This document shows positions 36,041-49,995 of a stretch of DNA of 64,000 bases, one piece after another. The notes below the pieces were generated by a model that saw only the letters and a program-made list of their open reading frames with translations, ran no database searches and was not told the origin of the DNA. Made by a program: the position numbers and the translations under genes. The DNA is from Brevibacterium aurantiacum (lineage in GTDB: Bacteria; Actinomycetota; Actinomycetes; Actinomycetales; Brevibacteriaceae). Within the stretch, counting starts at the first letter, position 1; each line of letters opens with the position of its first letter. The DNA is taken from positions 1 through 64,000 of the forward strand of contig NZ_FXZB01000004.1 in NCBI RefSeq assembly GCF_900169065.1, read 5' to 3'.

Positions 36041-37252
36041 TCATCGGTCCAGGATTCTCAGGCGTGTGGGTCTGGCTTCCAGAGGCTCGGGCAGGTTCAG
36101 CGGGCCGCGTCCCGGACTCAGCCGTCCGGCGATGCTCGAATGCGCGGCACCGGTGAGGTTCGGCTCGGTGCCTGCGAGTCCGTTCCAGCTCAGCCATCCG
36201 AGCAGCGCCATAAGGAGGGCTTCTTTGGCACCTTCGGGCAGCCCGAAGGCCTGATCCGTGCTGGTCAGGGTGATGCCGGGGCCGAGCTCCGAGGCCATTC
36301 GTCCCAGCAGCGTCGGGTTCCGGGTGCCCCCGCCGGAGGCGATGACCGTGGTGACGCCGTGTGCGTGGCAGGCATCGGCGACCGTGCGCGCGGTCAGCGC
36401 CGTGACCGTCGCGATGGCATCATGCTCGCCGAGGTGGGTCCTGGGTTCGAGGAATCCATCGAGGTAGTCCGCGTGGAAGAGTTCCTTGCCCGTCGACTTC
36501 GGTGCCGGAAGTTGGTAGTACGGATCGGCCAGCAGCTGCTCGAGCAGCTCCTCATCGACCCGACCGCGTGCGGCCAGCTCCCCGTCACGGTCGAAGCCCG
36601 CCTCCCCTTTGGTGATCCTGCGGGCGAGGATGTCGATGAGTGCATTGGCGGGGCCGGTGTCGAAGGCCAGCGGTGCGCGCTCGGGCGCGAGGACCGTGAT
36701 GTTGGCGATGCCGCCGAGGTTGAGCACCGCAATCGGAGCCTCGACGTCACCGACAAGGAGGCTGTCGAGGATTCCGACGAGCGGGGCGCCCTGCCCACCG
36801 GCGGCAACGTCGCGGGCACGGACGTCGGAGAGTACGGGAGCTCCGGTCGCCTCGGCGATCCATGCCGGTTGGCCGATCTGCAGTGTGGAGGTGACGGCAC
36901 CCTCGGTGATGTCGTGGCGCACGGTCTGCCCGTGGGAGACGATGAGCTCGGCCTCGACTCCGGTTTCGGTGCAGAGGTCGCTGACGGCCTGGGCGCAGAA
37001 GCGGCCCAAGCGGGCATCGACACTGGAGACCAAGGACAGGGGGACGTCGGCAGGCTCGAGCAGACGCAGGATGTCGCGGCGCAGCTGCTGGTCGAATTCG
37101 ACCTCTCGGCTGGCGAGGATGCGGACACCAAGTTCGGAGAGACCAGCCGCCTGGCGGACACTCAGCTCGTCACCGTCATCGTGGATGAAATCAGCGAGGA
37201 CGACGTCGAGGGCATCGGCGGACGTTCCTGTCATCAGGCCGGCGATGATCAT
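36041..37252 (-). CDS. anmK: Anhydro-N-acetylmuramic acid kinase
   Basis: A 403-residue AnmK, which cleaves the 1,6-anhydro ring of anhydro-MurNAc and phosphorylates it to MurNAc-6-P. The N-terminal phosphate loop GLMTGTSADALDVVLADF, SHGQTVRHD, NLGGIANITVLAP, FDTGPANALID and the Gly-rich ASGGGTRNPTLLGRM are all intact. Its ATG overlaps the stop of the GntR regulator gene (ATGA). With murQ and the kinase it gives a complete route from anhydro-MurNAc to GlcNAc-6-P. Confidence 0.95.
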   Translation of the reverse strand: MIIAGLMTGTSADALDVVLADFIHDDGDELSVRQAAGLSELGVRILASREVEFDQQLRRDILRLLEPADVPLSLVSSVDARLGRFCAQAVSDLCTETGVEAELIVSHGQTVRHDITEGAVTSTLQIGQPAWIAEATGAPVLSDVRARDVAAGGQGAPLVGILDSLLVGDVEAPIAVLNLGGIANITVLAPERAPLAFDTGPANALIDILARRITKGEAGFDRDGELAARGRVDEELLEQLLADPYYQLPAPKSTGKELFHADYLDGFLEPRTHLGEHDAIATVTALTARTVADACHAHGVTTVIASGGGTRNPTLLGRMASELGPGITLTSTDQAFGLPEGAKEALLMALLGWLSWNGLAGTEPNLTGAAHSSIAGRLSPGRGPLNLPEPLEARPTRLRILDR

Positions 37253-37971
37253 GGGCGGCCTCCTCCGTGGGTGTCGGGCAGGGTGAGTACGCTGCGGATC
37301 TTGTAGCGATCTCCGCGATAGACCGAGCGAACGAATTCGAAGGGCACGCCGTCGGCTCCTCGGGAGGTGCGTTCGAAGAGCAGTGCCGTTGACTGTTCGG
37401 GAACTCCGAGGATCTTCGCCTCGCCCGCGTCGAGGAGGGTCGGTTCGATCGTCTGCACACTGTGGTTGAGAGAGATGGAGAAGCGCGAGGCCAGCAGTTC
37501 GTAGAACGAACTGTTCTCCAGGTCCGCAGGCTTCAGACCGGGGACGAGGGCGGCGGGGATGTGCAGTTCCTCAAGTGCGAGTGGTTCGTCATCGGCCAGG
37601 CGCAGACGCAGAATTGCGATGACCTCGGCATCATCGTCGATGTGGAGCCTGCGCCCGATGTGGGCGCCGGCCTTGGTCACGTCGAAGGAGACCACGCGCG
37701 ACCCCGGGCGCATACCGCGGGCGACCATGTCTTCTGTGAAGGAGCTCGCTGCCAGTGGCTGGTCGAGTTTCGGGCCGAGGGCGAAGACGCCTGCGCCATG
37801 GCGACGGCGGACGACGCCCTTGGAGACCAGTTCGTCGATGGCGCGGCGCAGGGTCATCCGCGAGATGCCCAGCGCTTCGGCGAGCTGGCGTTCGGGCGGG
37901 AACTGCTCGCCGGCGGCCATCGTCTCAAGGCGGTCGAGGAGCTGATCCCGAATCGAGTGGAATTTGGTCAC
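37249..37971 (-). CDS. GntR/HutC-family regulator of the amino-sugar recycling operon
   Basis: A 240-residue regulator. The N-terminal winged helix has FPPERQLAEALGISRMTLRRAIDEL and VSKGVVRRRHGAGVFAL; residues about 75-235 form a UTRA effector domain that typically binds phosphorylated sugars. I prefer GTG 37971 (MTKFHSIRD) since an upstream GTG at 38013 falls inside a palindrome likely to be the operator. It is the first gene of the anmK-symporter-murQ-kinase operon. By analogy with NagR/DasR, GlcNAc-6-P may be the ligand (inference). Confidence 0.87.
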   Translation of the reverse strand: MTKFHSIRDQLLDRLETMAAGEQFPPERQLAEALGISRMTLRRAIDELVSKGVVRRRHGAGVFALGPKLDQPLAASSFTEDMVARGMRPGSRVVSFDVTKAGAHIGRRLHIDDDAEVIAILRLRLADDEPLALEELHIPAALVPGLKPADLENSSFYELLASRFSISLNHSVQTIEPTLLDAGEAKILGVPEQSTALLFERTSRGADGVPFEFVRSVYRGDRYKIRSVLTLPDTHGGGRP

Positions 37972-38006
37972 GTGACTATTGAGGCATAGGACACACCTGG
38001 AAATCA

Positions 38007-38019
38007 AGACCACTGGTCT
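38007..38019. promoter_or_regulatory. Palindromic operator, GntR-type
   Basis: AGACCACTGGTCT is a perfect 13-bp dyad (AGACCA-C-TGGTCT) between the divergent GntR and YghZ-like genes. It contains the AGACCA/TGGTCT half-sites characteristic of NagR/DasR-like regulators, although in the opposite order to the classical dre element. Confidence 0.6.
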
Positions 38020-39209: not shown

Positions 39210-40349
39210 TCATTCGTGGGCGGCTTCGAGCAGGACCCCGGTGTGTGGGGCCCAGCGCGGTCGGAATGCATAGACGCAGGCCAGCCGCACGAGTGCTGAG
39301 CGCTCATAGGTGCGGACCCGGTCTGGATCCAGTCCGCTCGCCGAGGTGATCCGAGAGATCTCCCCGATCACCACCTCGGCGTCGTCCTGGGTCCAGATCC
39401 CCTGGTGACTGCGCCACTGCGCGTGCGCGCGCAGGTTGCCCAGGTCGAGTTCGCGTTCGCCGAGGCAGGCCGTGTCGACGTCGAGCAGTCCGGGTCCGGC
39501 CACCGGATCCCACATGACCTGCTTGTCATGGAGGTCGCGGTGGATCGGACCCCAGTTCCGCTCCCCCGCCGAGGAATTGTTCCCGTCTGCCAAGGACGCG
39601 CCGTCGCTGAGGAGGTCGGCGCTGACCTGCGTGATCAGAGCATCAACCTCGGCGAGCTTCTCTCCGAGGTGGACGCGGGCACGATCGCGCCACTCGTTGA
39701 GCACCTGCACTTCCGAGCTCGCCGAATGGACCGGCATCGACGGCATCGCCGCAGCAATCGTGTTCGTCGCGGCACTCGTGTCCGCTCCAGCAGTCATGTC
39801 CGTCTCAGTGGTCGTGTCGGTCGTGGATGCGGCGAGCGCCCAAGCGTCGAGAGCTTCAGCCCAGGCACGCGACCAATCAGCACCCAAGCGCTGTGGATCA
39901 TGGAGTTCGACGCCCGGCAGTGCACTGAGGACGACGGTCGAATCATCCGCGGTGAGCACGGTCGGCAATGCGAAGCCGTTCCGGAACGCTTCGGCCCGGT
40001 CCTGTCCGGCGACGATTCCATCCGCTTTGGACGAGCGCACGCATTTGGCGAAGCGTCCATCGGCCAGGCGGATCACGGCTCTCTTCCCCGGCCGATGCGA
40101 GACCACGCGGTTCCCAGCGGTGCCGAGCAGTCGCTCGAGTCCCGGCAGCTTCGAGTCTCTGCCTTCCTCGAGCATGTCCACTCGACCGTTGCTGAGGAAC
40201 CCTGACCTGATCGCAGACCCGTGCTGAGCTTCGAGCGCGATCCGACCTCGGCTGGCGGGCCAGGCACGGCACACAGTCCACTTCTGGCCTTCGATCGTGA
40301 CGAATTCGGGGATGTCAGACACCGTTTGTGCCGCAGGTCCTGGCGTCAT
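39210..40349 (-). CDS. APH-fold phosphotransferase, second of a pair (HRDLHDKQ variant)
   Basis: A 379-residue kinase-like protein at the end of the six-gene glycosyltransferase operon. The catalytic loop is HRDLHDKQVMW (H270), with Gln where aminoglycoside phosphotransferases have Asn, and the metal-binding strand is GLLDVDTACLG. An Ala/Thr-rich insertion (about 174-200) lies before it. The N-terminal lobe is divergent. Its ATG overlaps the stop of the sister kinase (ATGA). The Q variant also occurs in maltokinases, so a sugar or sugar-lipid acceptor is possible. The acceptor is unknown. Confidence 0.72.
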   Translation of the reverse strand: MTPGPAAQTVSDIPEFVTIEGQKWTVCRAWPASRGRIALEAQHGSAIRSGFLSNGRVDMLEEGRDSKLPGLERLLGTAGNRVVSHRPGKRAVIRLADGRFAKCVRSSKADGIVAGQDRAEAFRNGFALPTVLTADDSTVVLSALPGVELHDPQRLGADWSRAWAEALDAWALAASTTDTTTETDMTAGADTSAATNTIAAAMPSMPVHSASSEVQVLNEWRDRARVHLGEKLAEVDALITQVSADLLSDGASLADGNNSSAGERNWGPIHRDLHDKQVMWDPVAGPGLLDVDTACLGERELDLGNLRAHAQWRSHQGIWTQDDAEVVIGEISRITSASGLDPDRVRTYERSALVRLACVYAFRPRWAPHTGVLLEAAHE

Positions 40350-41614
40350 TTCGACACCCGGCTCGCGTTCGCGGACAGAGCCTGCTGAGCTGCATTGATG
40401 GTCTGCATTGTGGCCTGCTGCCAATCCGGTCGGCATGTGCGCCACGGTTCGACGGCCGTGACGAGCATGGCCCAGGCGGCCCATGCCTCCACATCGACAT
40501 CGACTCCGCCTGCTGCTCGGTAGCCGTCGAGGAACCCGGCCTCGAGTGACGTGCCTTCCTCGTCGGTGCGTCGCCGACAGGCGGCCACCCAGCGGCCAAG
40601 GTCCATCCCGACAGGGCCGACACCGGCCCGGTCGAGATCGATGATGCGGCATTCCGAATGACCGACAAGCACCTGGTCGGGGCTGAGGTCCCCATGAATC
40701 GCACGGGCGCCGCCATCGGCTGCAGCACCGGTGAGGGGTTCGTTCCCGATCCGCTGTCGAAGCTCCCGGACGATGTCCTGGACGGACCTGCCCACTTCGG
40801 GCAGCAGCTGCGCCAGCAGCGTCGCGGTTTCCTCGGCTTGATCAAACGGCGATGGAGAGGAACCGGAGACCACCTCGGCGGGGGTGTGGCGGTGAAGTTC
40901 TGCGATGATGACTCCCACTTCCTCGGCCACAGCGAGGTCGGGAGACGTCTCCAGGTCACCCGTCCCCCACCAGGGAGAGCCCACAGCCGTTCCTTTGCTG
41001 CCGATGGGTTCGACAGGGAGGGTCGGCAGACCCCAATCGGTCCACTGTTTGGCGGTCTCGACCAGGTGCTGCTGGGAGCGGGTGCCGATGCGAATGAACT
41101 CGGGAGCCCCCGCGTGCTCTGGCGAATGTTTGAGCAGAACTCTCCGTCCGGGGTTGTAGCCGATGACATCGATCTCACCGTTCAACCGCGCAATCGCGCG
41201 AGCAGTCTCCTTCCCCAGCTTCGAATCCGCCGCCACCGATCCACTCAGCAGCACACTGCCGGTGGCACCGGCGGATCGTGGTTCGCTGCATTCGTGCACA
41301 GTGATCGTCTCATCGTGCCGGGCAGCCCGCCTGCGAATATTGACGAGCTTGTCAGCGCTGGTCACAACCGCAGTCCACCCCCAGTCCTCAAGCCCGCCGA
41401 GGCGGCTCCCGGCTTCCCGCGACCAGGACACGATGGCATTGCGACCGGGTTTGACGCGGATGCGGTTGGGCACGACGGGAAAGCCTAAGCGCTGCGAGAG
41501 TGCCTCGGCTGATCTGAGCTCGGTCACGTACGGCAGGTTCGCGAACTCCGCCGTTGCCTCATCGAGTTCTGCCGTTGCCTCATCATCGATTCCATGAAGG
41601 TCCGTCATGGTCAC
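40346..41614 (-). CDS. APH-fold phosphotransferase, first of a pair (HGDLSPDQ variant)
   Basis: A 422-residue kinase-like protein. The catalytic loop is AIHGDLSPDQVLV (H307), again with Gln in place of Asn, and the metal site is CRIIDLDRAGVGP. It has a longer N-terminal region with a beta-rich lobe. I choose GTG 41614: it overlaps the ABC-transporter stop (GTGA) and has AGGAGG seven bases upstream; an ATG six bases later is less well placed. It is followed by a paralogous kinase, so the operon encodes two related phosphotransferases of unknown acceptor. Confidence 0.74.
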   Translation of the reverse strand: MTMTDLHGIDDEATAELDEATAEFANLPYVTELRSAEALSQRLGFPVVPNRIRVKPGRNAIVSWSREAGSRLGGLEDWGWTAVVTSADKLVNIRRRAARHDETITVHECSEPRSAGATGSVLLSGSVAADSKLGKETARAIARLNGEIDVIGYNPGRRVLLKHSPEHAGAPEFIRIGTRSQQHLVETAKQWTDWGLPTLPVEPIGSKGTAVGSPWWGTGDLETSPDLAVAEEVGVIIAELHRHTPAEVVSGSSPSPFDQAEETATLLAQLLPEVGRSVQDIVRELRQRIGNEPLTGAAADGGARAIHGDLSPDQVLVGHSECRIIDLDRAGVGPVGMDLGRWVAACRRRTDEEGTSLEAGFLDGYRAAGGVDVDVEAWAAWAMLVTAVEPWRTCRPDWQQATMQTINAAQQALSANASRVSK

Positions 41615-43497
41615 GCCCTTACCTCCTGAGGAATATTTCCCATCTGGGAATCTTCGGCCTGTGTGCGCATCCACTCGGCGACGCGTGTGCCGGGATTGCC
41701 TGCCAGCTCGCTCGGCGATCCGTCTTCGACGATCTGTCCGTCTTCGAGCCACAGCACCCGGTCGAGGCCGCGGATCATGGCCAGATCGTGAGTGATGACG
41801 ATGCTGGTGCGCCCTTCGGTCAGCATGGAGACCGAGTCTGTGACCTGTCCCCGGGTCGCCGGGTCGAGGCCCGAGGTCGCTTCGTCGAAGACGACGACGG
41901 GGGCGTCGCGCACCAATGCCCTGGCGATGGCCAGGCGCTGGCGCTGCCCACCGGAGAGGGTGTCGCCGCGGTTGCCCAACACGGTGTCGTAACCGTCGGG
42001 CAGTCCTTGGATGAAATCATCGGCTGAGGCGGCACGGGCCGCGGCCTCCACCTCGGCGTCGGTGGCATCCAAGCGACCGTAGCGGATGTTCTCCCGCACG
42101 GTCGCGGCGAACAGCACCGATTCCTGCAGAAGCACGGACATGCTCGACCGCAGGGAGGCTCTGGTGACGTTGTGGGTGCCGTAGCCGTCGATGAAGATCG
42201 ATCCCGATTCCGGCTGCGAGAGCCTCAGCAGGTAGCTCATCAGTGTGGATTTCCCGGCCCCTGAGGCGCCGAGGATTCCGACCTTCTGACCCGCGGGAAT
42301 GAGCAGATTGAGATCATCGAACAACGGGTTTCCATGACCATCGGTCGAGGTGATGCGGTCGAAGACGACATCACCGGCAACGGGTCCCATGGTGAGCGCA
42401 CCGGGGGCGTCGGCAATCTCGATCGGTTCGTCGAGGAGGTCCGCGATCCGCTCCCCCGATGCGGTGGCGCGGGCGATCCGGCCGGTGTATTTGGCCATAT
42501 CGCGCAGCGGCTTCATCGCGATCTTGAGGTACATGAGGAACAGCACCAGATCGCCCGGGGACATGGCCCCACGCAGCACCTGATAGCTGCCGAAGATGAG
42601 CACGAGAGCCTGGGAGATGCCGACGAGCACATCGGTCGAGCGCTCGAGGCCGGCGGCGAGGCGACGTGCCCGCACTCCCGCCTTGAGTGCGCGTTCGTTG
42701 CCGTTGGCGAATTCGCGTGCCACTGTGCCTTCGAGACCGTAGGCCTGGACGACGCGGATGGCGCCGAGGGCCTCAGCAGCGGAGCCGACGAGCCTGCCTT
42801 CGCCCTTACGGGTCGAACGCGAAGCCGTCGTGATCTTCGGGGTCGCGATCTTCGAGAGCACCCCGTAGATCGCGGCCGTGATGAGCACGATGGCGCTGAG
42901 GATCGGGTCGAGGATGACCATGACGACGAGGAGGACGGCCAGGGTGATGACGTTGCCCACCAGCGGAAGACCGGCCGTCACCGCCACTTCCTGGAGGCGT
43001 CCGATATCGCCGACGAGGCGCTGAGAGGTGTCTCCGATCGAGGCCCGCGAGTGGTACTTCAGCGACAGGGCCTGCACATGTTCGAAGACCCGTGAGCGCA
43101 GCTGGGTCGCAACCCGGGCGCCGACGAGTGCGAAGCAGATGGTCGAGGCATAGTTCGCCACGGCCCTGCCCGCCACGATGACCGCCAGACCGATCGCGGC
43201 GGCGGCCAGGGTCATCCCGACGTTGGATCCGACGCCGATGGTCGGCCCGATCTCTGCGCCCAGGGCAGAGGTCACCGCATCAATGGCGATCTTGAGCGGC
43301 CAGGGTTCGAGGATGCGGAAGATGACGTCGCAGAACAGTGCGGCCAGCCCGCCGAGGATGAGCCACTTGTGCTGGCCCAGGTGCGGGGTGAGGATTCGCA
43401 GGGTTCGCTTCAGTGCCCCGGGCGAGATCTTCGTCCGGGACTTCTTCGACTGCGAAGCCTGCTGCGACTTCTGCTCTGGTTGTGGGGTCTGACTCAT
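41611..43497 (-). CDS. ABCB-type ABC exporter (fused permease-ATPase half transporter)
   Basis: A 628-residue half transporter. Residues about 30-330 form a six-span type-1 exporter domain, preceded by a Gln/Ser/Lys-rich cytosolic tail. The ATPase domain has Walker A GASGAGKST, Q-loop VLLQESVLFAATVRENIRYG, signature LSGGQRQRLAIARAL, Walker B VVVFDEATSGLD and switch His in IVITHD, all intact. As a homodimer it would flip or export a lipid- or sugar-linked product across the membrane. Start ATG 43497 overlaps the preceding glycosyltransferase stop by four bases. Confidence 0.9.
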   Translation of the reverse strand: MSQTPQPEQKSQQASQSKKSRTKISPGALKRTLRILTPHLGQHKWLILGGLAALFCDVIFRILEPWPLKIAIDAVTSALGAEIGPTIGVGSNVGMTLAAAAIGLAVIVAGRAVANYASTICFALVGARVATQLRSRVFEHVQALSLKYHSRASIGDTSQRLVGDIGRLQEVAVTAGLPLVGNVITLAVLLVVMVILDPILSAIVLITAAIYGVLSKIATPKITTASRSTRKGEGRLVGSAAEALGAIRVVQAYGLEGTVAREFANGNERALKAGVRARRLAAGLERSTDVLVGISQALVLIFGSYQVLRGAMSPGDLVLFLMYLKIAMKPLRDMAKYTGRIARATASGERIADLLDEPIEIADAPGALTMGPVAGDVVFDRITSTDGHGNPLFDDLNLLIPAGQKVGILGASGAGKSTLMSYLLRLSQPESGSIFIDGYGTHNVTRASLRSSMSVLLQESVLFAATVRENIRYGRLDATDAEVEAAARAASADDFIQGLPDGYDTVLGNRGDTLSGGQRQRLAIARALVRDAPVVVFDEATSGLDPATRGQVTDSVSMLTEGRTSIVITHDLAMIRGLDRVLWLEDGQIVEDGSPSELAGNPGTRVAEWMRTQAEDSQMGNIPQEVRA

Positions 43498-44669
43498 ACC
43501 GGCTCCATGACGAACGGTTCCAGGATCTCCTGGCACCGGCTGGTCCACGAATGATGGGCCAGGGCTTCGGATCGGGCGGCAGCACCCATACGATGACGCA
43601 CTTCGGCGTCGTCGATGAGGTTCTGCAGGGCAGCACTCAGGGCACCGGTGTCATCGGCGGGCACCAGTGTCGCGGCATCTGTGCCTTCGAGAACTGCGGG
43701 AATCGATCCCACGGCTGAAGCGACGATGGGCAGCCCTGCGGCGAGGTACTCGTAGATCTTCAGCGGTGAGAAGTAGTTCTCCCCCGCCGGGTACGGGGCC
43801 ACGGCGATATCGAAGGTGCGCAGGTGCGCCGGGATCTCTTCGGGGGCCAGCGCACCGTGGAAGGTCACGCGACCGCCGAGGCGACGGGCCTTCGCCTGCT
43901 GTTGCAGAGCCTCCGATTCCGGCCCATGCCCGAGGATGTCGAGATGGAAGTTTCCCTGCAGCCCCGCGCAGGCCTCGATCAGTCGATCAGTGCCGTGCCA
44001 GGGTTTGAGGGTTCCCACGAATCCGATCCGCACCGCACGGCTGCCTGATGCGTCCCGGGCGGTCGCGGTGGGGGTGATCCGGTCCGTGTTCACACCGTTG
44101 GGGACGACCGAGACATCGCTCAGACCCGGGTAGTCCCGGTTCACCCAGCCGGCGACCGCATCACTGACGCAGACGATCCGCTCGGCTCCGACGAAGCTGT
44201 GGGCCGTGGTCCGAGCCGCGTGCTCGTCGTGGACGAGCCCACGATGCTGCTTCTGCTCAGCGAGCAGCGGTGCGTTGACCTCAAGGACCAATGGCGCGCC
44301 GAGGCGGCTGCTGATTTCGGCTCCGGCCGTGGAGAACAGCGAATACCGTTCATAGACGAGGTCAAAGCCCTGGTCGGCTCCCGCATCCGGATCGGAAACG
44401 GTGTCGACGACCATATCGGCGAGCATGTCGGACAGGCGCATGAGGGCGATCTCGCGTTGGCTTCGGTCCAGTCCGCGTGGCACCTCGAGCCGGGTGATGT
44501 CGACGTCGGCGAGGTCGGCTGGGATGTCGTCATCGGTGCGGGTGCAGAAGATGCTGACCTCGTGGCCGAGGCTCCTGAAGGTGCGGACGACTTCCTGCAC
44601 GTGGACGCTCGCGCCCTTGGTGCCGAAGACTCCGATGCCCGGGTCGAGCAGAATGTAGGCGATTCTCAT
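43494..44669 (-). CDS. GT4-family glycosyltransferase (second)
   Basis: A 391-residue GT-B enzyme. The N-terminal acceptor domain has GIGVFGTKGASVHVQEVVRTF; the C-terminal nucleotide-sugar domain has IGFVGTLKPWHGTDRLIEA and the EX7E-like donor motif region in YPAGENYFSPLKIYEYLAAG. The sugar and acceptor are unknown. Both ends overlap neighbours by four bases (upstream GT4, downstream exporter), so its product is probably made in stoichiometric amounts with them. Confidence 0.85.
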   Translation of the reverse strand: MRIAYILLDPGIGVFGTKGASVHVQEVVRTFRSLGHEVSIFCTRTDDDIPADLADVDITRLEVPRGLDRSQREIALMRLSDMLADMVVDTVSDPDAGADQGFDLVYERYSLFSTAGAEISSRLGAPLVLEVNAPLLAEQKQHRGLVHDEHAARTTAHSFVGAERIVCVSDAVAGWVNRDYPGLSDVSVVPNGVNTDRITPTATARDASGSRAVRIGFVGTLKPWHGTDRLIEACAGLQGNFHLDILGHGPESEALQQQAKARRLGGRVTFHGALAPEEIPAHLRTFDIAVAPYPAGENYFSPLKIYEYLAAGLPIVASAVGSIPAVLEGTDAATLVPADDTGALSAALQNLIDDAEVRHRMGAAARSEALAHHSWTSRCQEILEPFVMEPV

Positions 44670-46039
44670 GACACGTACTCCAGTTCGCGGTCAGCATTCG
44701 GTGCGGCTTGGTCGGTGTTCGACGCGGCCTGATCAGCGTTTGGTGCGGCGCGGCCGGCGTTCGGTAGGGCGCGGCCGGCCTGGTCGACCAGTCCGGACAG
44801 TTCGCGGGCCTGGGCCGCCGAGTCGTGCAGCCGGCACACCAGATCTCTCGCGGCGTCGGTGATCTCTCGCACGGAATCCGGGGCTTCTCGCAGACGGCGG
44901 ACCACCTCGGCGATGGCGGTGGTGATCTGTTCGGGATCGCTCCCGTCGTCGACGAGCCAGCCGGTCTCACCATCGATGATGACCTCGGGCACCGCCGTGA
45001 CATTGCCGGCCACACAGGGAATTCCAGTGGCCATGCCTTCGAGCAGCACGGTCGGCAGGCCATCGGCGTTGCCGTCGGTGCCGATGACGAAGGGGGCGAC
45101 GAGGAGGTCGTGGCTGACGAAAATCTCGCGGACCTCGGACTGGGTCAGAGCACCGTGCATGTCGACGAGCTCGGTGAGATGCAGAGTGTCGATGAGCTCA
45201 CGCAGCTCGTCCTCGAGCGGACCTGTGCCGACGAGGTCGAGGTGGCAGGGCAGGCCGCGATCGCGCAGCCGGGCAAGTGCAGTGAGCAGATGCCCGAAGC
45301 CCTTCTTCTCGACGAGGCGACCGACTGCCAGCAGCGAGGGAATCGCCTGCGCCGCGCCACTTGGCTGCTCGGCGATGGTGGGACGGTAGGGGAAACGCTC
45401 AAGTTCGAGACCGTTGCGCACGACGACGATCCGTTCGCTGAGTTCGGGTCCCAGGATGCGGTGCAGATAGCTGTGGTTGTAGTCGCTGATGGCGATGACG
45501 TGGTCGGCGCCTGCGACCTTCCGGCTCAGATCCTCGAGTTCGACGCTCTCATGGAAGATGTCCTTCGCATGTGTGGTGAACGAGTACGGAATAGCGGTCA
45601 GGGCTGAGGCGGCTCTGGCCACGGTCGTCGCCACCGAGGCAAAGTGGGCGTGGAGGTGGGTGACCTCGTGTTCGAGTGCCAAGCGGGCCACGGCCACTGC
45701 CTGGACGGCATCGTCGTGGCCGAGTTCGGCAAGGTCGCCGAGGTGGGCCTGCAGACCGGAGGCGATCTTCGGATCCTGCAGGCTGTCCTGCCAGGTCTGC
45801 CAGTAGCTACGGGCGCTCGAGGGCCGTTCGACGTGAATGACGGGCGCCTTGACCCTGGCCAGCTCCGGGTGGAAGCGGGTGTCGGTCGTGGGACGGAGGG
45901 AGAAGATGACGAGCTCTTCACCGGCGGCTTCCCTGGCGAGGATTTCGGAGACGATGAAGGTCTCAGAGAACCGGGGATACATCTTCAGCACGTAGGCCCG
46001 GCGGACGGAAGGCTTGGTGGGAGTGTGATCAGCCTGCAT
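44666..46039 (-). CDS. GT4-family glycosyltransferase (first) with repetitive C-terminal tail
   Basis: A 457-residue GT-B enzyme. It has an N-terminal MYPRFSETFIVSEILARE, middle HLHAHFASVATTVA and C-terminal donor domain with VGRLVEKKGFGHLLTAL, LVGTGPLEDELREL and GTDGNADGLPTVLLEGMATG. This resembles colanic-acid/WcaL-type transferases. Start ATG 46039 has GGAG upstream and overlaps the previous gene by 11 bp. The last 40 residues are tandem seven-residue repeats of the type NADQAAP, outside the catalytic fold. Confidence 0.85.
   Translation of the reverse strand: MQADHTPTKPSVRRAYVLKMYPRFSETFIVSEILAREAAGEELVIFSLRPTTDTRFHPELARVKAPVIHVERPSSARSYWQTWQDSLQDPKIASGLQAHLGDLAELGHDDAVQAVAVARLALEHEVTHLHAHFASVATTVARAASALTAIPYSFTTHAKDIFHESVELEDLSRKVAGADHVIAISDYNHSYLHRILGPELSERIVVVRNGLELERFPYRPTIAEQPSGAAQAIPSLLAVGRLVEKKGFGHLLTALARLRDRGLPCHLDLVGTGPLEDELRELIDTLHLTELVDMHGALTQSEVREIFVSHDLLVAPFVIGTDGNADGLPTVLLEGMATGIPCVAGNVTAVPEVIIDGETGWLVDDGSDPEQITTAIAEVVRRLREAPDSVREITDAARDLVCRLHDSAAQARELSGLVDQAGRALPNAGRAAPNADQAASNTDQAAPNADRELEYVS
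44691..44785 (-). repeat. 21-bp tandem repeats in the C-terminal tail of a GT4 gene
   Basis: About four imperfect in-frame repeats of 21 bp encode NAGRAAP, NADQAAS, NTDQAAP and NADREL. Since the unit is a multiple of three, copy-number change would alter tail length without a frameshift. The boundaries are approximate. Confidence 0.6.
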
Positions 46040-47264
46040 AGCGAATCTCCTTGATCGAAGTGATGCTGCCACGGCTTGCTGCAGCTGAGTCTGTGCCGAT
46101 TGTCTCGGCGTCTGTGCCGATGAGTTCGGCTGCGAGATGTGCGATGGTCTGGAGCCCGGCGAGGTCGACATTCGAACGGTCGATCGAGTGGCCCACCCGA
46201 TCTCCGAACCAGTCGTTGAGCGCGGCGACGCTCACCTCGGAGAAGGCGCAGGTGTCGACGGCTCCGACGGCAGCGAGCGCTTCTGCCCGCCGAGGTTGTT
46301 CCGCGCGATGGCTGTTGCGGGGGACGACGAGAGCTGGGGTCGCAGTCGCCATCACCTCGCTCAGAGTGTTGTAGCCGCCCATGCAGACAACGGCGCTGGC
46401 CGAGGCGATGAGACCGGGAATGTCATCGCTGTGTCGAATGACCGTCGTCTCTTTCGCTGCGGTGCGTTTGAGTGCTTCGAAGTCTGCGAAGTCCATCTGC
46501 GGGCCGGTCACGACCAGGTGGTTGTACCCTGCCGGTGGCTGTGAGCGCACGGCGATCGAGGCGAGTTCGGCGCCGTCGGAGCCGCCGCCCAGACAGGTGA
46601 GCACGAACTTTCCCGGCGTGGTTGTGGCCCGGTCATCGGGGCGTTCCATGGCCAGGTACCCGGTGCATTCGGCGATGCGGGCGAGTTCCGTCGGCACCTC
46701 GCCGGTCGTGCGAGGGTCGTAGACGTCAGGATCGCCGTAGATCCAGACCGCGTCGAAGGAGTCCGCAACAGCACCGGGGCCGCCCACGCGATTCCATTCC
46801 CGCTCGATCACCTTGGGTGAGTCGAGGACCTCGCGCAGGCCGAGGACCGTCCGGCATCCACGGGCACGAACGTGGCGAAGTGCTTCTCTGAGTTCGCCGT
46901 CGATGCCGAAGGGGTGCCGGTCAACGATGAAGAGCTCCGGGTCCTGCTGGTCGAGGATCGCCTTGATGGCGGCCTTCCGAAGCGAGCTGAGTCCCTCCAT
47001 CGACGAGGCGAGCGCCCGCGGCTGGTATCCACCGGCTGCAGGAGTCACACCTGGAAGAATCACCCAGTCCCACCCTGCCGGCAGGTCGAAGCGGGTGGCT
47101 TCGGGATTGCCTGCGATCAGCAGTCCGCTCACTCGTCGACCGGTCAGTGCGGGAAGTGACTTGGCCATGGCGAAGGCCAGTGCACGGTTGCGGCGGATGT
47201 GCCCCAGGCCCAGCGAGTCGTGGGAGAACAGTGCGATTCTCAAAGTGGAATTCATAGTTCTCAT
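46029..47264 (-). CDS. MurG/MGT-like glycosyltransferase (GT28-type)
   Basis: A 411-residue GT-B enzyme with the N-terminal signature FSHDSLGLGHIRRNRALAFA, close to predicted glycosyltransferases of the COG4671 group related to MurG. The C-terminal donor-binding segment is VVCMGGYNTLSEVMATATP then LVVPRNSHRAEQPRRAEAL. It would transfer a sugar from a nucleotide donor to an unknown acceptor. It is the first of six overlapping genes. ATG 47264 and 47255 are both possible; neither has a strong ribosome site, and direct repeats lie only 13 bp upstream, so the message may be leaderless. Confidence 0.82.
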   Translation of the reverse strand: MRTMNSTLRIALFSHDSLGLGHIRRNRALAFAMAKSLPALTGRRVSGLLIAGNPEATRFDLPAGWDWVILPGVTPAAGGYQPRALASSMEGLSSLRKAAIKAILDQQDPELFIVDRHPFGIDGELREALRHVRARGCRTVLGLREVLDSPKVIEREWNRVGGPGAVADSFDAVWIYGDPDVYDPRTTGEVPTELARIAECTGYLAMERPDDRATTTPGKFVLTCLGGGSDGAELASIAVRSQPPAGYNHLVVTGPQMDFADFEALKRTAAKETTVIRHSDDIPGLIASASAVVCMGGYNTLSEVMATATPALVVPRNSHRAEQPRRAEALAAVGAVDTCAFSEVSVAALNDWFGDRVGHSIDRSNVDLAGLQTIAHLAAELIGTDAETIGTDSAAASRGSITSIKEIRYAG

Positions 47265-47276
47265 CTTGTCGCGCGC

Positions 47277-47296
47277 AATTAAGATGGAATTAAGAT
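47277..47296 (-). promoter_or_regulatory. Direct repeats AATTAAGAT with 11-bp spacing, OmpR-type site candidate
   Basis: AATTAAGAT occurs at 47277-47285 and 47288-47296, identical and one helical turn apart. On the coding strand this reads ATCTTAATT twice. OmpR/PhoB-family dimers bind such head-to-tail repeats. It lies between the OmpR-type regulator gene and the glycosyltransferase operon. Its closeness to the start codon (12 bases) would place it over a -10 region of a leaderless message, so repression or a dual -10 role is as likely as activation. Confidence 0.45.
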
Positions 47297-47340: not shown

Positions 47341-48000
47341 TCAGTCGACGCGGTAGCCGAATCCTCGCACCGTGGTGACGAAGTCGCTGCCGAGCTTCTT
47401 GCGCAGATACCCCACGTAGACATCGACGACGTTGGAGCCGGGATCGAAGTCGAATCCCCACACGTGGGACAGCAGCTGTTCTCGTGAGAGCACATTGCCG
47501 CGGTTCTGCAGCAGGATCTCTGCCAAGGACAGCTCCCGGGCGGAGAGGTCGATGATCTTGTCTGCCACCCAGACCTGGCGCTTGAGCAGGTCGATGCGCA
47601 CGTCGCCGCGGACGAGTTCCGTCTGCGGTGCTTCGGTGGCGGTCTCTTTGAGCCGCAGTCTGATGCGGGCCAGCAGCTCGCCGAATCTGAACGGTTTGAT
47701 CATGTAGTCCGCCGCACCGGACTCGAGCGCGAAGATCGTGTCATCGGCGTTGTCGCGTGCGGTGAGAACGAGGACCGGAAGATCGGGTCTGTCTTTGCGC
47801 AGCTGGCTGAGCACGCTGAATCCGTCGAGGCCCGGCAGGCCGATGTCGAGGACGAGCAGGTCGAAGTCTCCTGTCAGCGCCAGATCACGGCCGGTGATCC
47901 CATCGGCGGCGATCTCAGTGACGAAGCCTGCGGCTTTGAGCCCTTTGGCGATGAAGGCGGAGATCCGCGCCTCATCTTCGACAACGAGAATTCTGTTCAC
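47341..48000 (-). CDS. OmpR-family response regulator
   Basis: A 219-residue regulator. The receiver has the acidic pair VVEDE (8-9), phospho-acceptor Asp52 in LLVLDIGLPGLDG and Lys102 in YMIKPF. The C-terminal winged helix (about 125-219) has DLSARELSLAEILLQN, VDVYVGYLRKKLG and VRGFGYRVD. Its start overlaps the stop of the histidine kinase by four bases. It lies directly before the six-gene glycosyltransferase operon, with a tandem repeat between, so that operon is its most likely target. Confidence 0.92.
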   Translation of the reverse strand: MNRILVVEDEARISAFIAKGLKAAGFVTEIAADGITGRDLALTGDFDLLVLDIGLPGLDGFSVLSQLRKDRPDLPVLVLTARDNADDTIFALESGAADYMIKPFRFGELLARIRLRLKETATEAPQTELVRGDVRIDLLKRQVWVADKIIDLSARELSLAEILLQNRGNVLSREQLLSHVWGFDFDPGSNVVDVYVGYLRKKLGSDFVTTVRGFGYRVD

Positions 48001-49442
48001 TGCGGTCCTTTCGGCAGGATCATTCGGAACTGGGCGCCCCTGGAGACGTGGTCGAGGACTACGGTGCCTCCGTGCGCCTCGGCGATGGCCCTGATGATGG
48101 ACAGTCCGAGTCCGAAGCCGTGTCCTTCTGTCGACCCTCGACTGAATCGTTCGAAGACGCCGGCAGCGATCTCATCCGGGACTCCGCTTCCTTCATCGCG
48201 GACCCAGATGTGGACGTTGTCATCGACTACGCGGGCGCCGAAGGTGATCGACTGGTCCTCCTCGGTGTGTTCGACGGCGTTTGAGGCCAACTGAAGCAGA
48301 GCCTGCGTCAGCCGCTGTCGATCACCGGTGAGGACGATTGCCGGTGGAGTCTCGATCCGCCAATCACGCTGCCCCAGCCCTTTGGCCTTGGCCAGGGACT
48401 CGTTGAGCAGGGACGGTACGTCGACCTGTTCCGGTCGGACGAAGTCGGGGCGCCGAGATCGCGCCAGAATCAGCAGCTCCTCGACGAGTCGGGCCATCCG
48501 ATCGGTTTCGTCGAGCAGCATCGTCCGGGTCTCATCGACGTCATCGACGTCGCTGGAGTCCATGGTCTCAAGATGGCCGCTGAGGATGGTCAGGGGTGTG
48601 CGGAGCTCATGGCCGACGTCGTCGAGGAAGCGCCGCTGTGTTTCGAAGGAGGCTTCGAGGCGGTCGAGCATGTCGTTGAATGTGCGTCCGAGCTCGGCGA
48701 TGTCGTCATGGCCTCGTGTGGTGATTCGGCTGCTGAGATCGCCGCCGGAGATCGACTGTGCGGTCTGTCGCAACTCGGTGACCGGGGCCAGAAGCTTCCT
48801 GGCCAGCACCAACGAGATTCCCGAGATGAGCAGTGCGGCGGCCAGTGCGACGATGATGTAGATCTGCATGACGTGTGTGAGATCGGTGTGGCTGGCGGTG
48901 ACGTTGTGGACGACGACGAACGACCCCGGGCCGTTGGCAGTACCCGAGTTGGTTCCGCCAGCTGAGTCGCCAGCGGATGCATTCCCAGCGGGCGCGTTTC
49001 CACCGGGCCCGGAAGTGATCGGCAGTACGTAGCCCTCGTATTCATCGCCGTCGATCGTCAGTTTGATCTCCCCGCCGTCAGCGGACACTCCGGCCACGGC
49101 CTCCTCGAACTCCTGGGAACGATTCACCGCGGAGTTCGGGTCTCCTTGGTAGAGGACGCGACCATCGGTGAGGAAGGCGAAGAGGGTTTCGTCCTCGTCC
49201 GGCCGATTCTGGGCGAGGAACTGGGTGAGGATCTGATCGACGGAGGTGAAGCGCTCCCCTGTTTCGGGATCGACACCGTTCTGGGCGAAGGAGCGCATCT
49301 CTGCGATCTCCTGAGTCATGGAGGCAGAGTTCCGCCCCTCGACGTTGTTCGCTTCGACGGTATAGAGGACGAGTCCGACGACGGTGAGTGCGAGTACGGA
49401 GAGAATGGCGACCGCGATCGTCAGTCGGTTCTGAACGGTCAT
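47997..49442 (-). CDS. Membrane sensor histidine kinase
   Basis: A 481-residue kinase starting at ATG 49442 (MTVQNRLTI). Span 1 is at about 8-28, followed by an extracytoplasmic domain of about 165 residues with a Gly/Ala/Asn-rich end, and span 2 at about 193-214. Then come HAMP, the HisKA helix with FLDDVGHELRTPLT (His278) and the ATPase with N-box ASNAVEH, G1 VRDEGSGVP and G2 HGFGLGLSI. A longer upstream open frame overlaps the poly-Asp gene and is not used. It pairs with the adjacent OmpR-type regulator. The signal is unknown; the preceding poly-Asp protein may contribute. Confidence 0.9.
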   Translation of the reverse strand: MTVQNRLTIAVAILSVLALTVVGLVLYTVEANNVEGRNSASMTQEIAEMRSFAQNGVDPETGERFTSVDQILTQFLAQNRPDEDETLFAFLTDGRVLYQGDPNSAVNRSQEFEEAVAGVSADGGEIKLTIDGDEYEGYVLPITSGPGGNAPAGNASAGDSAGGTNSGTANGPGSFVVVHNVTASHTDLTHVMQIYIIVALAAALLISGISLVLARKLLAPVTELRQTAQSISGGDLSSRITTRGHDDIAELGRTFNDMLDRLEASFETQRRFLDDVGHELRTPLTILSGHLETMDSSDVDDVDETRTMLLDETDRMARLVEELLILARSRRPDFVRPEQVDVPSLLNESLAKAKGLGQRDWRIETPPAIVLTGDRQRLTQALLQLASNAVEHTEEDQSITFGARVVDDNVHIWVRDEGSGVPDEIAAGVFERFSRGSTEGHGFGLGLSIIRAIAEAHGGTVVLDHVSRGAQFRMILPKGPQ

Positions 49443-49455
49443 CCTGATGCGACGC

Positions 49456-49995
49456 TCAGTCGTCGTCATCATCGCCATCATCATCGTCGTCGCCGTCGTC
49501 GCCGTCGTCGTCGCCGTCATCATCGTCGTCGTCATCGTCGTCGTCATCGCCGCCGGAGCCGCCGCCGTCGGAGTTGGCGGAGGCAGCGGGCACTTCGCGC
49601 GGCGGGTTGGGCACCGGCTCATAGGAATGTTCGAGTTCCTCGGGCTCGGACGAGTCGTCGGAAGAATTCGAGGACTGACTCGAGTCGGTGGGCTGATCGG
49701 CAGAGCCGTCTGCTGACTCGGTTGCGTCGGCCGATTCGGTCGCACCTGCGGATTCGGATCCATCGGCGCTCGCGGGCGCCGAGGTCTCTGGGGTGACTTC
49801 GACCGGGGTGAGATCTGGTGGCTCCGGCTGAGCAGAGGTCCTGACGATGATGACTGCAACCAAAGCGAGCACGACAACCAGACCAGCGATCACGCCGCCC
49901 AGAATCTTCGATCGTCCTTCCACGCTCTCAACACTGCCCAAGGCCGGAAGGTTTGTCGAGCGATCCGCGATGAGAGTCTTCTTAGACCAGGTCAA
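49456..49995 (-). CDS. Single-span membrane protein with extracytoplasmic poly-aspartate tail
   Basis: A 179-residue protein. A short basic N-terminus precedes one membrane span (about 32-52, LGGVIAGLVVVLALVAVIIV). A Ser/Ala/Glu/Asp/Thr-rich linker follows (55-145), then an almost pure Asp/Gly tail of about 30 residues at the very C-terminus (GGDDDDDDDDDDD type). With this topology the tail is outside the cell. Such tails bind divalent cations such as Ca2+ (general chemistry). It ends 13 bp before the kinase gene, so it is the first gene of the sensory operon. No family is recognised. The triplet GAC/GAT tract could change length in frame. Confidence 0.72.
   Translation of the reverse strand: MTWSKKTLIADRSTNLPALGSVESVEGRSKILGGVIAGLVVVLALVAVIIVRTSAQPEPPDLTPVEVTPETSAPASADGSESAGATESADATESADGSADQPTDSSQSSNSSDDSSEPEELEHSYEPVPNPPREVPAASANSDGGGSGGDDDDDDDDDDDGDDDGDDGDDDDDGDDDDD

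What the first reader, a model, noticed from the sequence alone, without database searches (positions are those of the whole stretch)
39210..47264. Six overlapping genes: three glycosyltransferases, one exporter and two variant kinases
From 47264 down to 39210, each gene overlaps the next (11 bp or ATGA/GTGA), which implies fixed stoichiometry. The set could build a short glycan on an acceptor, phosphorylate it and export it through the ABCB-type transporter. No acceptor or sugar-nucleotide gene is included. I know of no named system with this exact composition; it is the best candidate here for an undescribed pathway.
Basis: partly seen in the sequence, partly recalled or inferred. Interest (0 to 1): 0.85.

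Follow-up and report, generated by a model that had tools for sequence, protein, structure and literature searches.

The report
Conserved operon for exporting phosphorylated glycan
Six tightly packed genes that stay together in the same order across many actinobacteria, and also sit on some Proteobacteria plasmids, most likely build a charged sugar chain, phosphorylate it and pump it out of the cell; I found no description of such a system in the open-access papers I could search.

Summary
Genes at 47264-39210 (- strand) overlap at all five junctions: a GT28/MurG-like transferase, two GT4 transferases, an ABCB exporter and two APH-fold kinases. Closest named relatives are Brevibacterium.

It is a conserved unit. 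71 of 80 named actinobacterial loci (23 genus or family labels) carry g1-g4 followed by two kinases; seven more run off contig ends and two Arthrobacter loci lack one or both kinases. The kinases keep HxDxxxxQ and, nearly always, DxD. They are fused to each other in ten loci and to the exporter in two.

The same six genes sit on Paracoccus and Pseudorhodobacter plasmids and on plasmids of 18 of 5,426 E. coli genomes, there followed by an AlgE-type outer-membrane channel and a UDP-sugar dehydrogenase. A UDP-glucose dehydrogenase gene lies near 23 of the 80 loci.

A CTTAAT-N5-CTTAAT box, unique in this genome, lies just before g1.

Best reading: a kinase-modified uronic-acid glycan, assembled in the cytoplasm and exported by the ABC transporter. 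Acceptor, order of steps and product are inferred. My ten paper searches found no description. "MGT" and "fixed stoichiometry" are not supported.

The parts
46029..47264 (-). g1: GT28/MurG-like glycosyltransferase with (Y/F)SHDxxGLGHxRR and MGGYNT motifs, first gene of the set
44666..46039 (-). g2: GT4 glycosyltransferase, best NCBIfam scores EpsE and WcaL (below cut-off); overlaps g1 by 11 bp
43494..44669 (-). g3: GT4 glycosyltransferase, best solved relatives PimA-type; ATGA overlap
41611..43497 (-). g4: ABCB-type exporter (membrane domain plus ATPase); ATGA overlap
40346..41614 (-). g5: APH-fold kinase with an extra N-terminal part; HGDxxxxQ and DxD; GTGA overlap
39210..40349 (-). g6: second APH-fold kinase with an extra N-terminal part; HRDxxxxQ and DxD; ATGA overlap
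47341..48000 (-). OmpR-family response regulator, probable regulator of the set
47997..49442 (-). sensor histidine kinase partner (start codon inferred)
47278..47294 (-). CTTAAT-N5-CTTAAT direct repeat just upstream of g1; candidate response-regulator site

Best explanation
An ABC-dependent glycan assembly and export pathway with two dedicated carbohydrate kinases. g1 (GT28, MurG-like), g2 and g3 (GT4) build a short or medium anionic glycan on the cytoplasmic side from nucleotide sugars, with UDP-glucuronic acid a likely donor. g5 and g6 phosphorylate the glycan, and g4 exports it; phosphorylation probably marks the chain as finished or exportable. In bacteria with an outer membrane an AlgE-type barrel can complete secretion. 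A two-component system acting on a direct-repeat box upstream of g1 switches the set on. Shown: gene content, order, overlaps, fusions, conserved catalytic residues, neighbours and the box. Inferred: sugars, acceptor, order of steps, role of the phosphates, regulator-box binding.
For: Fusions: g5-g6 in 10 ORFs and g4-g5 in 2, of 111 loci scanned, plus g5-g6 in Paracoccus and Pseudorhodobacter. Kinase residues: H, D, Q and first D of DxD in 44 of 45 g5 rows (the other is a piece of the split L113 gene) and 46 of 46 g6 rows; second D in 43 of 45 and 45 of 46. Uronic-acid and export links: UGD in 23 of 80 loci, 11 labels, 17 of them directly after g6 on the same strand; AlgE (PF13372, E 1.1e-23) plus nucleotide-sugar dehydrogenase after g6 in E. 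coli; AlgE plus heparinase II/III-like protein with a diverged version on Candidatus Manganitrophus plasmids. Regulation: exact box once in the 4.15-Mb genome, within two mismatches in 19 of 31 Brevibacterium sequences; HK and RR both in 40 of 80 loci, 15 labels. Distances of g1-g4 correlate at r 0.79-0.90 over 703 pairs.
Against: No glycan is known to me for any carrier. UGD is present in all 25 genus genomes with or without the operon (38 of 39 genomes match in all), and in this genome it lies elsewhere; 57 of 80 loci have no UGD in the stretch held, so its link rests on position in a minority. AlgE and heparinase neighbours come from diderms and may reflect a changed product; the Paracoccus locus lists neither. 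The kinases could act on a free sugar instead of the glycan. E. coli kinases match g5 and g6 only weakly (6.6e-49 and 1.8e-27) and barely tell them apart. Two Arthrobacter loci keep g1-g4 but have one kinase or none (L116, L103). 40 of 80 loci show no two-component pair in the stretch held, and 12 of 31 Brevibacterium sequences have three or more mismatches to the box.
Confidence: 0.5

Rival explanations
1. A phosphorylated glycolipid flipped by an MsbA/PglK-like step. g1 starts on a membrane lipid, g2 and g3 extend it, kinases phosphorylate it, g4 flips it, as in lipopolysaccharide core assembly.
For: g4 scores best against MsbA-type NCBIfam models, though below their cut-offs; g3 is nearest to PimA among solved structures by sequence; g1 is GT28-like, a class that includes lipid-acceptor enzymes (recalled); no polymerase or ligase in the set.
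Against: The E. coli version carries an AlgE-type barrel, which suits a soluble anionic chain better than a lipid; g4 also matches the glucan exporter NdvA.
Confidence: 0.25
2. A secreted small glycoside or antibiotic, with the APH genes as self-resistance kinases.
For: APH fold matches drug phosphotransferases.
Against: No scaffold-making enzyme recurs near the set; only UGD and a two-component pair recur in 5 or more genera within the stretches held; kept in many genera; motifs are HxDxxxxQ rather than the N of drug kinases (the N is recalled).
Confidence: 0.1
3. Kinases are sugar-salvage enzymes that feed nucleotide-sugar supply (sugar 1-phosphates), and only the GTs and exporter act on the glycan.
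For: g5 profile matches maltokinase chains; no pyrophosphorylase is needed if housekeeping enzymes supply it.
Against: g5 is fused to the exporter in two genomes and to g6 in ten loci; two different kinases are kept together in 71 of the 73 named loci that are long enough to show them.
Confidence: 0.12

Closest known systems
ABC-dependent O-antigen assembly with the WbdD kinase (E. coli O9a), PMC3482155, abstract read
   Same: Cytoplasmic glycan, exported by an ABC transporter, with a kinase that phosphorylates the glycan and stops chain growth.
   Different: WbdD has a eukaryotic-type kinase domain joined to a methyltransferase and a coiled coil; here two APH-fold kinases and no methyltransferase. 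The O9a transporter is a two-gene ABC type (recalled), here an ABCB half-transporter. Homology of the kinases was not tested.
Sinorhizobium meliloti msbA2 operon (SMb21188-SMb21191), PMC3687685 and PMC12239276, passages read
   Same: Two glycosyltransferases plus an MsbA-type exporter for an unknown polysaccharide, activated by a two-component system (ExoS/ChvI); exporter loss harmful only if the upstream GTs remain.
   Different: Only the ABC gene matches our profiles (E 4.5e-87); no g1, g2, g3, g5 or g6 match at E 1e-3 in the 14-kb stretch. First gene described as a putative acyltransferase. No kinase match.
Rhizobial redA-redB type loci (R. etli CIAT 652, Mesorhizobium WSM1497)
   Same: g1-like and g2-like genes side by side.
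   Different: Third GT is a second g1-like protein, exporter is a different 904-aa ABC protein (weak g4 match), no APH gene annotated in the stretches seen.
AlgE alginate secretion channel (PF13372)
   Same: Outer-membrane protein of this family follows g6 on E. coli plasmids.
   Different: Alginate uses a synthase-dependent inner-membrane complex (recalled); here an ABC exporter.
Maltokinase and other APH-fold kinases (4o7o, 3csv, 3i0o)
   Same: Fold and catalytic HxD and DxD.
   Different: Extra N-terminal parts, Q in place of the N recalled for drug kinases, pairing, fusion to an exporter. (Maltokinase too has Q there, recalled.)

Membership tests
ABC-dependent glycan export with capping kinase (WbdD type) | Glycosyltransferases and ABC exporter in one operon | tested here: met
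   gene content and order; co-transcription itself not tested
ABC-dependent glycan export with capping kinase (WbdD type) | Kinase joined to a methyltransferase | tested here: not met
   Pfam finds only APH in g5 and g6
ABC-dependent glycan export with capping kinase (WbdD type) | Kinase acts on the chain end | not testable with these tools
   needs biochemistry
S. meliloti MsbA2 operon | Homologous glycosyltransferases | tested here: not met
   Only the ABC gene matches
APH drug-resistance kinases | APH fold with HxD and DxD catalytic residues | tested here: met
APH drug-resistance kinases | Asn in HxDxxxxN (recalled) | tested here: not met
   Gln in 44 of 45 g5 rows (the other row is a gap) and 46 of 46 g6 rows; one diverged Manganitrophus kinase has Asn
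Macrolide-type glycosyltransferase (MGT) | Score above the curated family cut-off | tested here: not met
   18.5 bits against a cut-off of 260
MurG | Score above the curated family cut-off | tested here: not met
   32.2 bits against a cut-off of 250.25
Alginate-type secretion | AlgE-family outer-membrane channel | tested here: inconclusive
   present in the E. coli and Manganitrophus versions, not listed in Paracoccus; none expected in a monoderm such as this one
Anti-phage defence systems (PADLOC) | Specific match to a defence model | tested here: not met
   g4 matches mad3 (3.4e-32), mad8 and AriA through its ATPase part and the RR weakly matches SduA; g1-g3, g5, g6 and HK match nothing

The most novel reading that the evidence does not exclude
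A previously undescribed cross-phylum secretion system in which two APH-fold kinases, physically coupled to an ABC exporter, phosphorylate a uronic-acid glycan as the licence for its export; it is widespread in actinobacteria, occurs on Proteobacteria plasmids (in E. coli with an AlgE-type channel), and is switched by its own two-component system.
Probability: 0.4. Interest if true: 0.8.

Novelty: new variant of a known kind. Interest (0 to 1): 0.64.

Why it matters
A six-gene set kept in order from Actinomyces and Rothia to Arthrobacter and Brevibacterium, and found on E. coli conjugative plasmids (10 of 10 Escherichia records typed so), implies a surface or secreted glycan that my searches found unassigned. 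It would give 'aminoglycoside phosphotransferase' annotations of this type a non-resistance role, and it makes a clear prediction (phosphorylated uronic-acid glycan, kinase-dependent export) that gene removal in a harmless cheese or soil actinobacterium could test.

Tried and rejected
Defence system: PADLOC gave nothing specific. Phage carriage: no match for the E. coli g5 kinase in phage records and no relative of g1 in viral contigs. UGD as a strict partner: rejected, it occurs with and without the operon in the genus. Recurrent acceptor or lipid gene near the operon: none in 5 or more genera except UGD and the two-component pair, after setting aside antisense shadows by position; four further families reached only 3 or 4 genera. 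S. meliloti msbA2 as a homologue: rejected except for the exporter family. Promoter and terminator scans found nothing. Papers: ten searches gave no description of the set in the titles and abstracts listed; most subscription journals are not held. A first junction count limited the start codons to those before the profile match and was replaced.

Caveats. The relaxed box pattern (25 of 64 non-Brevibacterium loci, 2 on the reverse strand, 0.23 expected per strand) was widened, and related loci are not independent. The named loci are the best 80 of 565 confirmed relatives of g1, so they favour close relatives. Of the 14 loci taken from the g5 hits, nine show several members of the set together (L068, L070-L076, L081; three cut by contig ends), one is a contig edge with kinases only (L069) and four are other APH genes (L077-L080). 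Of the ORFs listed I dropped L100_40, an antisense reading. One search assigns 14 g5-g6 pairs to one ORF, some only because the two profiles cross-match; one search is the stricter fusion count. In L113 g5 is in two pieces, and g4 of L113 and g1 of L156 appear in two pieces; both loci are counted as complete. The distance correlation covers g1-g4 only. Searches hold some genomes twice (unnamed and named copies).
Full report
What is in the sequence. The window lies in contig C45 of a 4.15-Mb genome of 70 contigs. Its closest named relatives at this locus are Brevibacterium. Between 47264 and 39210 on the minus strand there are six ORFs, each overlapping the next: 11 bp, ATGA, ATGA, GTGA, ATGA. 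Pfam assigns GT28 C-terminal (g1), GT4 (g2, g3), ABC membrane plus ATPase (g4) and APH (g5, g6). A response regulator (48000-47341) and a histidine kinase (49442-47997) lie directly upstream on the same strand. Downstream genes (aldo-keto reductase, GntR regulator, anmK) recur in many Brevibacterium loci; elsewhere only weak aldo-keto reductase matches were seen.

Is it a unit? Within the genus, 16 of 25 genomes (this one included) have a strong g1 match (E below 1e-50) and nine do not, so it is accessory there. In an even sample of the phylum, 19 of 396 genomes match the g1 profile at E 1e-20 or better, one of them weakly and with a stop inside. A scan of named genomes with the g1 alignment confirmed 565 relatives and kept the best 80. 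Of those 80, 71 have g1-g4 and at least two kinase motifs; seven are cut by contig ends; L116 has one kinase and L103 none. Four Arthrobacter or Pseudarthrobacter loci have a third kinase (L110, L115, L118, L125). Distances of g1-g4 are correlated (r 0.79 to 0.90, 703 pairs).

Coupling. Overlap geometry is largely conserved (counts in the observation check). Paracoccus aestuarii and Pseudorhodobacter turbinis plasmids also have fused kinases. A kinase fused to an exporter is the strongest hint that phosphorylation and export are linked.

The kinases. g5 and g6 are separate but related families: in the 44 loci searched each profile also picks up members of the other. The catalytic H and D, the Q of HxDxxxxQ and the first D of DxD are kept in 44 of 45 g5 rows, the remaining row at each place being a piece of the split L113 gene, and in 46 of 46 g6 rows; the second D in 43 of 45 and 45 of 46. 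At the usual lysine place in strand 3 (assigned by eye), g6 reads K in 41 of 46 rows, g5 reads R in 23 and K in 21 of 45. Models are confident (mean pLDDT 90.2 for g6, 89.9 for g5), and the nearest solved structures are APH-fold kinases, among them spectinomycin, choline and maltose kinases. Both have an added N-terminal part. They look like active small-molecule or carbohydrate kinases, not pseudokinases; that is inference from residues.

Neighbours in other lineages. Only two further families recur in five or more genera within the stretches held: UDP-glucose dehydrogenase and the two-component pair. UGD lies in 23 of 80 named loci, 11 labels (one is a weak partial match at a contig edge). 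In 17 of the 23 it follows g6 on the same strand, in four it lies downstream on the other strand, in two only upstream. HK and RR are both present in 40 of 80 loci, 15 labels. In this genome UGD is on contig C42, with no glycan genes near it that I recognised by eye.

Outside actinobacteria. On E. coli plasmids the six genes are followed by an Alginate_exp outer-membrane protein and a nucleotide-sugar dehydrogenase. Profile E-values for the E. coli proteins are 1.8e-100 (g1), 2.4e-138 (g2), 3.1e-123 (g3), 1.2e-182 (g4), 6.6e-49 (g5) and 1.8e-27 (g6). 18 of 5,426 complete E. coli genomes carry it at 99% identity or more, all on plasmids (which finds only near matches). The Paracoccus locus has a two-component pair beside it but no AlgE or UGD in the listed stretch. 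Candidatus Manganitrophus plasmids have a diverged, larger version: g1-like and g2-like transferases, two APH kinases, an ABC exporter (split in two genes in L175-L177), AlgE family and a heparinase II/III-like protein. Together these point to an acidic, uronic-acid glycan that can pass a barrel channel.

Regulation. CTTAAT-N5-CTTAAT at 47278-47294 occurs once, as an exact match, in the whole genome and not in the backward control. Of 31 Brevibacterium sequences (window included, some genomes twice), 10 have the exact box, 7 one mismatch and 2 two mismatches, all 31-33 bases before the profile start of g1; 12 have three or more mismatches. The consensus resembles the PmrA box (recalled); the response regulator scores 176 bits against the PmrA model, below its cut-off, and 207 against CzcR/CopR, also below. 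In other genera a looser repeat is common (caveats in Tried and rejected). The box ends 13 bases before the first ATG of g1, so the transcript may be very short-leadered, or translation may start at the next ATG; not tested.

How it probably works. g1-g3 assemble the chain in the cytoplasm, g5 and g6 phosphorylate it, g4 exports it. A precedent for a phosphate that ends chain growth in ABC-dependent export is WbdD (PMC3482155, abstract). A precedent for two GTs plus an MsbA-like exporter whose loss hurts only when the GTs remain is S. meliloti MsbA2 (PMC12239276, passages; PMC3687685, passages), but its GTs do not match our profiles. PMC5596199 (passages) notes that the msbA2 operon is upregulated in a transcriptome; I drew nothing more from it.

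Verdict. Real, conserved, undescribed in the open papers that ten searches could reach, mechanism plausible but undemonstrated. I rate it a new variant of ABC-dependent glycan export.

Noticed in passing
L170 8623-18801 (NZ_CP012501.1) and 17 further E. coli plasmids: The six-gene set with AlgE and UGD sits on E. coli plasmids, next to an IS630 transposase in L170; the same L170 stretch carries an annotated heat-stable enterotoxin gene a few kilobases upstream.
   Followed up: partly
L166 and L167 (Rhizobium etli, Mesorhizobium plasmids): Rhizobial loci pair a g1-like gene with a second g1-like transferase, a g2-like gene and a different 904-aa ABC protein; cyclase genes lie close by in both and a cyclic-nucleotide-binding protein in L167. 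Possibly a sister system.
   Followed up: partly
L110, L115, L118, L125 (Arthrobacter, Pseudarthrobacter): A third APH-type kinase gene lies in the set, after g6.
   Followed up: no
L174-L177 (Candidatus Manganitrophus plasmids): Diverged version with heparinase-like genes, and in three of the four also radical SAM and histidine phosphatase genes; several genes are annotated in pieces, perhaps assembly errors.
   Followed up: no
window 49453-49560 approx: Asp-rich, low-complexity stretch just upstream of the histidine kinase start that I chose; the true start of the kinase is uncertain.
   Followed up: no
window 36041-38013: anmK (anhydro-N-acetylmuramic acid kinase) with an adjoining GntR/UTRA regulator just beyond the set; probably cell-wall recycling, unrelated.
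   Followed up: no
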